DNA of 64,000 nucleotides, from positions 868,001-932,000 of the forward strand of contig NZ_JACCKD010000001.1 of assembly GCF_013450155.1 (NCBI RefSeq). Direction: 5' to 3'. This stretch comes from Haloechinothrix aidingensis (lineage in GTDB: Bacteria; Actinomycetota; Actinomycetes; Mycobacteriales; Pseudonocardiaceae). The notes under the pieces are model-generated. The model was given only the letters and a program-made list of their open reading frames with translations. It made no database searches and was not told the DNA's origin. Position numbers and translations under genes: made by a program. Positions 60,403-63,453 of this stretch are shown here, one piece after another; position 1 is the stretch's first letter, and each line of letters begins with the position of its first letter.

Positions 60403-60705
60403 TTACCGGCCGAGCCGCCCACGGCCCAGGTTCAGCAGTGCCATCGCGAGCTGGCGCCCTTCCGGCCCGAGCTCGCCGTAGCGGGTGAGTACGTCCATCT
60501 CCCTGTTGTAGACGATCCGGGTGCCGCCCGCTGCCATCCGCGCGGCGCCGATCTGGCGGGAGACGTCCACCCTGCGCTTGATCAGCCTGAGAATCTCGTC
60601 ATCGAGCCAGTCGATCTCGTCTCGGAGCTGGTCGACGTCGGCGGTATCAACGTCGGAGACTGGTTCCTCGTCGCGTTCCGCGCCGTCCGGTGCCCGTGTT
60701 GTCAT
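60403..60705 (-). CDS. Chorismate mutase (AroQ type)
   Basis: 100 residues. All-helical AroQ mutase converting chorismate to prephenate for Phe and Tyr. Matches the intracellular mycobacterial enzyme (Rv0948c): LRDEIDWLDDEILRLIKRRVDVS, GGTRIVYNREMDVLTRY, and the C-terminal LGRGRLGR. That enzyme is poorly active alone and is stimulated by binding DAHP synthase. ATG 60705 follows GGAGG. Its leader carries a Phe/Tyr attenuator (next entries). Next to uvrD1, as in mycobacteria. Confidence 0.93.
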   Translation of the reverse strand: MTTRAPDGAERDEEPVSDVDTADVDQLRDEIDWLDDEILRLIKRRVDVSRQIGAARMAAGGTRIVYNREMDVLTRYGELGPEGRQLAMALLNLGRGRLGR

Positions 60706-60752
60706 GTGATCCTCCGGTCGGTCCGGATGTCGCCAGTCCCCTGAGACAACGA

Positions 60753-60782
60753 AAGCCCCAGGGTCTGCCGACTCCGGGGCTT
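60753..60782 (-). terminator. Attenuator terminator in the chorismate mutase leader
   Basis: On the minus strand, 60782-60770 pairs with 60765-60753: 13 positions with one A-C mismatch and one G-U, GGCA tetraloop, then TTTCGTTG. It lies 47 bases before the chorismate mutase ATG and 21 bases after the leader peptide stop. Its left arm CCGGAGTC (60777-60770) is also exactly complementary to GACTCCGG (60828-60821) in the leader peptide, giving the alternative antiterminator. Confidence 0.8.
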
Positions 60783-60803
60783 GCTGTGATTGCTGGCTGT
60801 GCA

Positions 60804-60863
60804 CTACGCGATCACGGGAGCCGGAGTCCGGATCCCGTAGAAAAATCGAGTCACGTTGTGCAT
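60804..60863 (-). CDS. Phe/Tyr leader peptide controlling chorismate mutase
   Basis: 19 codons, MHNVTRFFYGIRTPAPVIA, stop TAG. The run Phe-Phe-Tyr (60845-60837) sits just before a hairpin arm: GGGATCCGG (60836-60828) pairs with CCGGCTCCC (60824-60816). A ribosome stalled at FFY would cover the first arm and free the second to pair with the terminator's left arm; an unstalled ribosome would let the terminator form. This is the classical ribosome-mediated attenuation design, in front of a gene of Phe/Tyr synthesis. No strong ribosome site precedes the ATG; a leaderless mRNA is possible (CACGAT 7 bases upstream). Confidence 0.78.
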   Translation of the reverse strand: MHNVTRFFYGIRTPAPVIA

Positions 60864-61023
60864 ACAGCTATCGTGACACACTGCGGCGCGCCGCGTCGAA
60901 CGGGCCGTGTGTGCCGCGGGGTCCACGGCGGCCGGCAACGGACTGCTGCGGAGCTGTGCCGGAATCCGCATGCGGCCCTCTGCCCGCTGGGATGTCCGTG
61001 CGTACCGGTAGCGTGGTGAGACG

Positions 61024-63453
61024 ATGAGCACCCTGTTCGACCGCCCCGGGGCGTACGCTCCGAGTACGGCTGACCACCCGGACCTGCTGGCCGACCTCAA
61101 CGACGCGCAACGCGACGCGGTGACCCACACCGGTGGTCCCCTGCTCGTCGTCGCCGGAGCCGGATCCGGCAAGACCCGGGTGCTGACGAGGCGAATCGCG
61201 TACCTCCTCGCGGAGCGGGGAGTGCACCAGGGCCAGATCATGGCGATCACCTTCACCAACAAGGCAGCGGCCGAGATGCGTGATCGCGTCGGTGAGCTGG
61301 TCGGGGTGCGCTCCAACACGATGTGGGTGTCGACCTTCCATTCGATGTGCGTGCGCTTGCTGCGGCGGGAGGCGAAGACGGCCGGGCTCGGGTCGAACTT
61401 CTCCATCTACGACGCCGACGACTCGAAGCGCCTGCTCACCCTGGTGGCGCGCGATCTGGACCTCAACACCAAGAGGTACACGCCGCGCACGCTGGCCGGT
61501 CAGATATCCAACCTGAAGAACGAGCTGGTCGACCACACCGACGCGGCGTCCAAGGCGAGTAACGAGCTCGAGCGCACGGTCGCGGAGGTGTATGCCGAGT
61601 ACCAGCGCAGGCTCCAGCTCGCCAACGCGCTCGACTTCGACGACCTGATCATGCGCACGGTACATCTGCTGCAGGCGTTTCCCGAGGTCACCGAGTACTA
61701 CCGGCGGCGATTCCGGCACGTGCTCGTTGACGAGTACCAGGACACCAACCACGCGCAGTACACCCTGGTGCGGGAGCTGGTGGGTACCGGCACGAGCCCG
61801 TCCGGGGTCGAACCGGCCGAGCTGTGCGTCGTGGGCGACGCCGACCAGTCGATCTACGCGTTCCGCGGGGCCACGATTCGTAATATCGAGGAGTTCGAGC
61901 GGGACTTCCCCGAGGCGCGCACGATCATGCTCGAGCAGAACTACCGCTCGACCCAGACGATTCTGTCCGCGGCCAACGCGGTGATCTCCCGTAACCCCAA
62001 CCGCAGGGACAAGCGACTGTGGAGCGATCTCGGTGCGGGCGACAGTATCGTCGGCTATGTCGCCGACAGCGAGCACGACGAGGCGGCCTTCGTCGCAGGC
62101 GAGATCGACGCGCTTGCCGACAGCGGCGAGGCCGGCTACTCGGATGTCGCGGTGTTCTACCGGACCAACAACCAGTCCCGCGTGTTCGAGGAGATCTTCA
62201 TCCGGCTCGGGCTGCCGTACCGGGTCGTGGGGGGTGTGCGGTTCTACGAACGCAGGGAGGTGCGTGACGCGCTGGCCTACCTGCGGGTGCTCGCCAACCC
62301 GGAGGACACCGTCAGCCTGCGCCGCATCCTCAATGTCCCCAAGCGCGGCATCGGGGAACGCGCCGAGGCCGCCGTCGCCCATCACGCCGAGCGCGAGCGC
62401 CTCTCGTTCTCGGCCGCGCTGCGTGCCGCGGCCGACGGGCGTATCCCCGATCTCAACTCCCGCGCACAGCGGAACATCGCGGCTTTCGTCACGCTGCTCG
62501 ACGAGCTGGGCGAACGTGTCGAGCGCGGTGACGACGTCGCCGATGTGCTCGAGGCGGTACTGGAGCGCACCGGCTACCGGGACGGCCTGGCCGAGTCGGA
62601 CGATCCGCAGGACGCGACCCGGTTGGACAATCTCACCGAGCTGGTGACCGTAGCGCGGGAGTTCGCCGAGAGCGCTGTGCCCGCCGAGGCCGCGGAGGCC
62701 GCGGAGGCCGCGGAGGCCGTCGACGAACTCGACGAGGAAGGCGAGGAACAGGCCCTCCCCGCGGGGTCGCTGGCCGCGTTCCTCGAGCGGGTGTCGCTTG
62801 TCGCCGACGCCGACTCGCTTCCGGCCCCGGACGGGGGCGATGCCGAGGACACCGAGCAGTCCGACAGCGGGATGGTCACGCTGATGACGGTGCACACCGC
62901 CAAAGGGCTGGAATATCCTGTCGTCTTCGGCACCGGGATGGAGGACGGGATCTTCCCGCATATGCGCGCCCTCGGAGAAGAGGCCGAGCTGGCCGAGGAG
63001 CGCAGGCTCGCCTACGTCGCCGTCACCCGCGCCCAGCGTCGCCTCTACCTTTCCCGCGCGCTCACCAGGACGGCGTGGGGTCAGCCGATGAGCAACCCGG
63101 CCTCGCGCTTTCTCACCGAGATCCCGGGCGAGCTGGTCGAGTGGCGACGCTCGGCCCCCTCCGGTGACTCGTTCGGTGGTTCCGGTGCGCCACGGGCCGC
63201 GACCACCTGGGCGGGGTCCGGTCAGGGAAGCGGCCAGTCGGGTCCGGTGCGCGGTACCGCGAGTACGGGTTGGAAGGACGCGGTACCGATGAAGCTCGAT
63301 GTCGGAGACAGGGTCAGTCACGACAAGTACGGGCTGGGCACGGTGGTGGCGACGGAGGGGACGGGTCCGCGCGCGACCGCGACGATCGACTTCGGCGCAT
63401 CGGGGCAGCTCAAGCTGATGCTCATCGGCAGCGTGCCGATGAGCAAACTCTGA
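61024..63453 (+). CDS. pcrA: ATP-dependent DNA helicase UvrD1/PcrA
   Basis: 809 residues. SF1A 3'-5' helicase. Walker A AGAGSGKTR (Lys50), FTNKAAAEM, Walker B VDEYQDTNH, QNYRST, TVHTAKGLEYPVVF, VAVTRAQRRLYL. An Ala/Glu repeat (PAEAAEAAEAAEAVDE) lies in domain 2B. The C-terminal about 55 residues (KLDVGDRVSHDKYGLGTVVA) form the Tudor-like domain through which UvrD/PcrA binds RNA polymerase. Works in nucleotide excision repair and replication-conflict resolution. Only a half LexA site (TCGAAC, 60896) is seen upstream. Confidence 0.96.
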   Translation: MSTLFDRPGAYAPSTADHPDLLADLNDAQRDAVTHTGGPLLVVAGAGSGKTRVLTRRIAYLLAERGVHQGQIMAITFTNKAAAEMRDRVGELVGVRSNTMWVSTFHSMCVRLLRREAKTAGLGSNFSIYDADDSKRLLTLVARDLDLNTKRYTPRTLAGQISNLKNELVDHTDAASKASNELERTVAEVYAEYQRRLQLANALDFDDLIMRTVHLLQAFPEVTEYYRRRFRHVLVDEYQDTNHAQYTLVRELVGTGTSPSGVEPAELCVVGDADQSIYAFRGATIRNIEEFERDFPEARTIMLEQNYRSTQTILSAANAVISRNPNRRDKRLWSDLGAGDSIVGYVADSEHDEAAFVAGEIDALADSGEAGYSDVAVFYRTNNQSRVFEEIFIRLGLPYRVVGGVRFYERREVRDALAYLRVLANPEDTVSLRRILNVPKRGIGERAEAAVAHHAERERLSFSAALRAAADGRIPDLNSRAQRNIAAFVTLLDELGERVERGDDVADVLEAVLERTGYRDGLAESDDPQDATRLDNLTELVTVAREFAESAVPAEAAEAAEAAEAVDELDEEGEEQALPAGSLAAFLERVSLVADADSLPAPDGGDAEDTEQSDSGMVTLMTVHTAKGLEYPVVFGTGMEDGIFPHMRALGEEAELAEERRLAYVAVTRAQRRLYLSRALTRTAWGQPMSNPASRFLTEIPGELVEWRRSAPSGDSFGGSGAPRAATTWAGSGQGSGQSGPVRGTASTGWKDAVPMKLDVGDRVSHDKYGLGTVVATEGTGPRATATIDFGASGQLKLMLIGSVPMSKL

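What the first reader, a model, noticed from the sequence alone, without database searches (positions are those of the whole stretch)
60753..60863. Complete Phe/Tyr ribosome-mediated attenuator upstream of chorismate mutase
Seen: a 19-codon leader frame with Phe-Phe-Tyr, a protector hairpin starting right after the Tyr codon (60836-60828 with 60824-60816), an 8-bp exact antiterminator pairing (60828-60821 with 60777-60770), and a 13-position terminator stem (60782-60770 with 60765-60753) just before the chorismate mutase ribosome site. Known: chorismate mutase feeds Phe and Tyr, and this logic is that of classical pheA/trp attenuators. Inference: chorismate mutase transcription rises when charged tRNA-Phe or tRNA-Tyr is scarce. 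I do not know of this control being described for the AroQ gene next to uvrD1.
Basis: partly seen in the sequence, partly recalled or inferred. Interest (0 to 1): 0.82.

Follow-up and report, generated by a model that had tools for sequence, protein, structure and literature searches.

The report
Phe/Tyr attenuator of chorismate mutase
Just before its only chorismate mutase gene this actinomycete carries an RNA switch in which a tiny peptide rich in phenylalanine and tyrosine most likely decides whether transcription goes on; the same switch is conserved across a large class of bacteria, including mycobacteria, and I found no description of it at this gene.

Summary
The leader MHNVTRFFYGIRTPAPVIA*, the protector hairpin, the 8-bp antiterminator and the terminator all lie where stated, and comparison shows they are a real conserved element. 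128 of 130 fetched loci with a related chorismate mutase (CM) gene carry the leader. All three mutually exclusive stems show compensatory changes, above shuffled and shifted controls. Five single-base frameshifts after the FFYG codons scramble the peptide but keep the RNA stems. A covariance model, used blind on 297 genomes of the class, gave 29 strong hits besides the window: 28 lie just upstream of CM, the 29th upstream of DAHP synthase. A conserved -10 box 6-7 nt before the start codon implies a leaderless leader peptide. DAHP synthase in the same genome has its own leader with Tyr, Trp and Phe codons; Trp occurs in 17 of 17 such leaders but only 4 of 86 CM leaders, so control codons match each enzyme's end products. 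The mechanism is classical ribosome-mediated attenuation. The closest described case is the AroR leader of Corynebacterium aroF; I found no description of it for chorismate mutase. No RNA, translation or response data could be obtained here.

The parts
60895..60900 (-). TTCGAC, weak -35-like hexamer
   Evidence: sequence; TCGAC recurs at this distance in many, not all, relatives
60870..60880 (-). extended -10 box TGTGT-CACGAT; places the transcription start at or next to the leader start codon
   Evidence: a [TC]ANNNT hexamer, mostly preceded by TGTGN, 6-7 nt before GTG/ATG in 106 of 118 unique loci by a strict pattern; 3.6% at other start-like codons
60804..60863 (-). 19-codon, probably leaderless leader peptide MHNVTRFFYGIRTPAPVIA*
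   Evidence: leader found in 128 of 130 loci
60837..60845 (-). control codons TTT TTC TAC (Phe-Phe-Tyr), ending directly before strand 1
   Evidence: FFY or a Phe/Tyr variant conserved; at least 3 F+Y in 85 of 86 unique leaders, Trp in 4 of 86
60816..60836 (-). protector hairpin 1:2 (60836-60828 with 60824-60816)
   Evidence: covariation score 0.223 vs 0.072 in shuffles, 0/500 as high
60821..60828 (-). antiterminator 5' strand GACTCCGG (inside the Arg-Thr-Pro codons)
   Evidence: 94.9% of cells paired with 60777-60770; 4 pairs with double changes; 0/500 shuffles as high in score
60770..60777 (-). antiterminator 3' strand CCGGAGTC, shared with the terminator
60753..60782 (-). terminator hairpin 3:4, followed by an imperfect U-tract (TTTCGTTGTCTC from 60754)
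   Evidence: 7 pairs with double changes, 0/500 shuffles; 4.7 T in 10 nt after the stem vs 1.5 background
60711..60715 (-). GGAGG ribosome-binding site of chorismate mutase
   Evidence: sequence
60403..60705 (-). chorismate mutase gene (AroQ type, CM_2), the regulated gene and the only CM_2 gene found in the genome
   Evidence: Pfam PF01817 E=2.5e-10, NCBIfam NF005894 and TIGR01808 above cut-off; single match in the genome; relative of M. tuberculosis Rv0948c structures

Best explanation
It is a ribosome-mediated transcription attenuator that ties chorismate mutase synthesis to the supply of charged tRNA-Phe and tRNA-Tyr. A transcript starts at, or within a base or two of, the ATG of the leader, so a ribosome starts on the leader without a Shine-Dalgarno site (inferred from the conserved -10 box). 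If Phe or Tyr is short, the ribosome stalls on FFY and covers strand 1. Strand 2 (GACTCCGG) then pairs with strand 3 (CCGGAGTC), the terminator cannot form and the CM gene is transcribed. If both are plentiful, the ribosome reaches the stop codon, where its rear edge lies over strand 2, so strand 3 pairs with strand 4 and transcription ends near 60745-60752. Shown here: the parts, their conservation, the covariation, the geometry and the promoter box. Inferred: stalling, termination and the amino-acid response.
For: (1) Exact anatomy. (2) Leader in 128 of 130 fetched loci, most in Pseudonocardiaceae but also in most other Mycobacteriales families sampled. (3) Compensatory change in 1:2, 2:3 and 3:4, above 500 shuffles and above slid registers. 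(4) Five frameshifts downstream of FFYG (L009, L031, L037, L077, L079) keep the stems and a nearby stop, so RNA and not peptide is selected there. (5) Geometry: strand 1 starts directly after the Tyr codon; the stop lies 30 or 33 nt from there in 112 of 118, putting the rear edge of a terminating ribosome on strand 2. (6) Folding with the stalled ribosome's footprint removed gives 2:3 at mean probability 0.77; with the ribosome at the stop, 3:4 at 0.99. (7) T-enrichment after the stem, 4.7 vs 1.5 per 10 nt. (8) The model finds CM blind in 28 of 29 strong hits across the class. (9) Code logic: DAHP synthase leaders contain Trp (17/17), CM leaders hardly ever (4/86), Fisher P = 5e-16. (10) Conserved -10 box 6-7 nt from the start codon.
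Against: The U-tract is imperfect here (UUUCGUUGU) and poor in mycobacteria, so termination may need NusG or another factor. At equilibrium 2:3 competes well even with strand 1 free, so the switch must rely on order of folding and on the ribosome. No transcript ends, ribosome profiling or expression response could be examined. A few relatives lack the leader (L038, L043), and some mycobacteria have lost the terminator (L170, L193) or the control codons.
Confidence: 0.92

Rival explanations
1. Same sensor, different output: stalling changes the fate of the transcript through Rho- or NusG-dependent termination, or through translational control of CM, rather than through an intrinsic terminator.
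For: U-tract imperfect here and poor in mycobacteria; strand 4 can also pair with a downstream segment in many sequences; cysteine leaders in mycobacteria act at translation (cited in PMC13236596).
Against: Clear T-enrichment after the stem; strand 4 covaries with strand 3; folding of the stretch from strand 4 towards the CM ribosome site is hardly more stable than shuffles (mean z -0.42); the CM ribosome site lies about 40 nt beyond the hairpin.
Confidence: 0.15
2. The leader encodes a conserved small protein with a function of its own, and the hairpins are incidental.
For: The peptide looks conserved (FFYGxRTPAPVxA) over a family.
Against: Five frameshifts after FFYG keep the RNA stems; base changes follow base pairing; the peptide beyond FFYG differs between families while the stems persist.
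Confidence: 0.02
3. A plain terminator or insulator upstream of CM, with a chance Phe/Tyr frame.
For: A good hairpin with a T-rich tail lies there.
Against: Control codons, strand 2 and spacing are conserved together with the hairpin; W/F/Y codon content tracks the regulated enzyme.
Confidence: 0.01

Closest known systems
AroR leader of the aroF (DAHP synthase) operon, Corynebacterium glutamicum (Neshat et al. 2014, as reported in PMC11802643 and PMC4046766)
   Same: Actinobacterial leader peptide with Phe-Tyr-Phe; Phe-responsive attenuation in the aromatic pathway
pheA (PheL) and trp attenuators of enterobacteria
   Same: Leader with tandem control codons, 1:2, 2:3 and 3:4 stems, terminator before the gene; pheA also encodes chorismate mutase activity (fused to prephenate dehydratase)
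   Different: No Rfam match to any leader family; here a free-standing AroQ, Tyr also a control codon, leader probably leaderless
Leaderless leader peptides of Streptomyces lividans (leuL, trpL, ilvL and others; PMC8079986) and of Corynebacterium ilvB
   Same: Leader transcribed without a 5' UTR, hairpins after it
   Different: Other amino acids and genes; the eight leaders listed for S. lividans include none for Phe/Tyr or chorismate mutase
ilvB1 attenuator of Mycobacterium tuberculosis (PMC13236596)
   Same: Same order, experimentally supported transcription attenuation by a leader ORF
   Different: Branched-chain control codons; chorismate mutase not named in the main text

Membership tests
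Ribosome-mediated transcription attenuator (pheA/trp type, mechanistic class) | short leader ORF with tandem codons for the end products of the regulated enzyme | tested here: met
   FFY before CM; Trp almost absent from CM leaders and present in DAHP synthase leaders
Ribosome-mediated transcription attenuator (pheA/trp type, mechanistic class) | mutually exclusive 1:2, 2:3 and 3:4 stems under selection | tested here: met
Ribosome-mediated transcription attenuator (pheA/trp type, mechanistic class) | intrinsic terminator with U-tract before the gene | tested here: met
   stem alignable in the 32 diverse sequences; T-rich though imperfect tail; some mycobacteria lost it
Ribosome-mediated transcription attenuator (pheA/trp type, mechanistic class) | stop codon placed so that a terminating ribosome covers strand 2 | tested here: met
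   stop at 30 or 33 nt in 112 of 118; rear edge computed at mean +12.8 with an assumed footprint
Ribosome-mediated transcription attenuator (pheA/trp type, mechanistic class) | leader translated; CM expression rises on Phe or Tyr limitation | not testable with these tools
   no transcriptome, ribosome-profiling or reporter data
Rfam Phe_leader and other Rfam leader families | covariance-model score at or near the gathering threshold | tested here: not met
   no Rfam hit in the window; only two chance miRNA matches far below threshold in the region at E<=10
AroR leader of Corynebacterium aroF | sits upstream of aroF and is homologous in sequence | tested here: inconclusive
   gene differs here; a related leader does precede AroF in other families, but the AroR sequence itself was not at hand

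The most novel reading that the evidence does not exclude
Two related leaderless attenuators run the aromatic pathway of the class Actinomycetes as a pair, one old element split by function: the chorismate mutase copy reads only Phe and Tyr, the DAHP synthase copy reads Phe, Tyr and Trp, so the branch point and the entry point are set separately by tRNA charging. The chorismate mutase copy has been eroding in part of the genus Mycobacterium.
Probability: 0.45. Interest if true: 0.68.

Novelty: new member of a known kind. Interest (0 to 1): 0.56.

Why it matters
A 2005 survey of actinobacteria reported no RNA control of Phe or Tyr genes (PMC1262725). This element shows there is one, class-wide, at the branch-point enzyme. 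Intracellular chorismate mutase of M. tuberculosis is poorly active alone and is activated by DAHP synthase (PMC4281200 abstract), so the amount of CM is a plausible control point on top of allostery. Attenuators are also where RNA polymerase of rifampicin-resistant M. tuberculosis terminates too often (PMC13236596), and engineering of laboratory actinomycetes for aromatic products could use or remove such a terminator.

Tried and rejected
Rfam search at gathering threshold and at E<=10: no relevant family. Search for further copies in the same genome with the CM model: none convincing. A conserved 4:5 hairpin after the terminator: present in many sequences but hardly beyond composition (mean z -0.42), so not claimed. 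Other aromatic genes of the genome: type II DAHP synthase and prephenate dehydratase have no aromatic-rich leader upstream, DAHP synthase type I has one. Literature: no paper found describing this leader at chorismate mutase; two likely relevant papers were not held. M. tuberculosis itself was not among the genomes I could identify, so nothing is claimed for it. Plain-terminator and small-protein readings were considered and rejected for the reasons given under rivals.

Full report
What is there. On the minus strand, 60863-60804 reads ATG...TAG and encodes MHNVTRFFYGIRTPAPVIA. Strand 1 (GGGATCCGG, 60836-60828) starts on the base after the Tyr codon; strand 2 contains CCGGCTCCC (60824-60816) and overlaps GACTCCGG (60828-60821); strand 3 is AAGCCCCGGAGTC (60782-60770) and strand 4 GACCCTGGGGCTT (60765-60753), followed by UCGUUGUCUC. 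The gene downstream, ATG at 60705 with GGAGG at 60715-60711, is an AroQ-type chorismate mutase (Pfam PF01817, NCBIfam NF005894 and TIGR01808), the only CM_2 gene found in the genome. The divergent neighbour at 61024 is a PcrA/UvrD helicase.

Conservation. All 60 relatives searched have the CM gene. Of 50 loci read, 48 have a Phe/Tyr leader frame; with 80 named loci from the genome collection the count is 128 of 130, 118 of them distinct. In Pseudonocardiaceae the pattern is FFYGxRTPAPVxA; elsewhere it is FFYGYRSAVPV, YFGYRIPVPV, FYGHRSPVPV and so on. L038 and L043 lack it, and L044 and L047 are weak.

Covariation. In a 32-sequence alignment made without structure information, the protector has 88.9% of cells paired and a covariation score of 0.223 against 0.072 in shuffles; the antiterminator 94.9% and 0.193 against 0.097, four pairs with changes on both sides; the terminator 87.0% and 0.147 against 0.064, seven such pairs. 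None of 500 shuffles reached any of these scores, and sliding the partner by 1-3 columns lowers them all. The shuffles do not control for relatedness; the slid registers do in part. Pair 12-28 (the wobble base of the Gly codon with the first base of the second Pro codon) changes from G-C to C-G or U-A in several families, which a purely coding reading does not predict. The strand-3 position that is unpaired in the terminator in most sequences pairs with strand 2 in 31 of 32.

RNA, not peptide. Five loci have one-base insertions or deletions after FFYG (L009, L031, L037, L077, L079): the peptide is scrambled, the stems remain, and the new stop is still close. The stop lies 30 or 33 nt after the Tyr codon in 112 of 118 loci, which puts the computed rear edge of a terminating ribosome at about +12, the first base of the CCGG of strand 2. 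With the stalled footprint removed, 2:3 forms with mean probability 0.77; with the ribosome at the stop, 3:4 forms with 0.99. These are equilibrium calculations with an assumed footprint.

Leaderless start. A [TC]ANNNT hexamer, mostly preceded by TGTGN, lies 6 or 7 nt before a GTG or ATG in 106 of 118 loci by a strict pattern, against 3.6% at other start-like codons of the same loci; several of the remaining 12 have near matches. In 84 of 106 the start is 10 codons before the Gly that follows Tyr. The transcription start was not measured; leaderless leader peptides are documented in Streptomyces (PMC8079986).

Breadth. A covariance model of 109 positions found only this convincing copy in its own genome. 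Across 297 genomes of the class, 29 further strong loci were read: 28 have CM directly downstream, and 26 of those genomes were not in the model. They include a genus that must be Mycobacterium (CM 77-92% identical to Rv0948c) and a genus of about 6-11 Mb genomes that is probably Streptomyces, with the leader xxFTYGNRPxGCHGRAA. In the mycobacterial sample 29 of 30 loci match the model and most have a leader like VLNxQRRFFYGYRPAVPVV.

The internal control. The 29th locus, and others like it, lie before AroF-type DAHP synthase with leaders such as MQRNFWRFYGYRPDTPVACRALR or MRTAWSFWYGDGP.... The window's own genome has DAHP synthase type I with MQRYRWFIGPARTGHGATTMR, and 17 Pseudonocardiaceae loci, this one included, share a leader of the RYFWFSGPA type. 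All 17 contain Trp; 4 of 86 CM leaders do (P = 5e-16; related sequences are not independent, so the P value is only indicative). DAHP synthase feeds all three aromatic amino acids and CM only Phe and Tyr, so codon content follows product.

Known and new. A survey in 2005 found no RNA element at actinobacterial Phe or Tyr genes (PMC1262725). The C. glutamicum aroF operon has a leader with Phe-Tyr-Phe, AroR, responding to Phe and not Tyr (PMC11802643; PMC4046766). An Acholeplasma aroF uORF motif exists (PMC8632094). The S. lividans list of leaders has no Phe/Tyr entry. Searches of the open literature found nothing at chorismate mutase; subscription papers were mostly not searchable, so priority cannot be certified. 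I therefore call it a new member of a known kind: it works like the pheA and trp attenuators, it meets every defining feature testable here, and it matches no Rfam family.

Limits. No experiment bears on stalling, termination or response. Whether Tyr alone is sensed is open, since AroR was reported not to respond to Tyr. The U-tract is weak here and more so in mycobacteria, so a factor may assist termination. Some mycobacteria have eroded the element.

Noticed in passing
L221 about 1120-1330 (contig C8 of the window's genome), upstream of DAHP synthase type I: Leader MQRYRWFIGPARTGHGATTMR* with Tyr, Trp and Phe, with a GAGCCGG/CCGGCTC hairpin after it; 16 further Pseudonocardiaceae loci share it (RYFWFSGPA type), many with a TAnnnT box near the start codon. 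L222, L224 and L233 also have a strong hairpin followed by a T run in between.
   Followed up: partly
L165, L172-L174, L177, L178, L180, L182-L184, L186-L188: In other actinomycete families the attenuator model hits upstream of AroF-type DAHP synthase, with leaders holding Phe and mostly Trp and Tyr (MQRNFWRFYGYRP..., MRTAWSFWYGDGP...).
   Followed up: partly
L170, L193 (terminator lost); L169, L190, L199, L217 (FPY or FPN); L214 (FFC); L218 (FFH): In part of the genus Mycobacterium the CM attenuator is decaying: terminator deleted or control codons replaced.
   Followed up: partly
A1 columns 100-127; window 60765-60738: Strand 4 can pair with a CGGG-rich segment just after the U-tract in many sequences, a possible fifth strand; hardly beyond composition in a simple test.
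   Followed up: partly
L061: A record named Rhodococcus rhodnii carries a CM locus whose leader and downstream sequence match those of Kibdelosporangium aridum (L057), so the record is probably contaminated or mislabelled.
   Followed up: no
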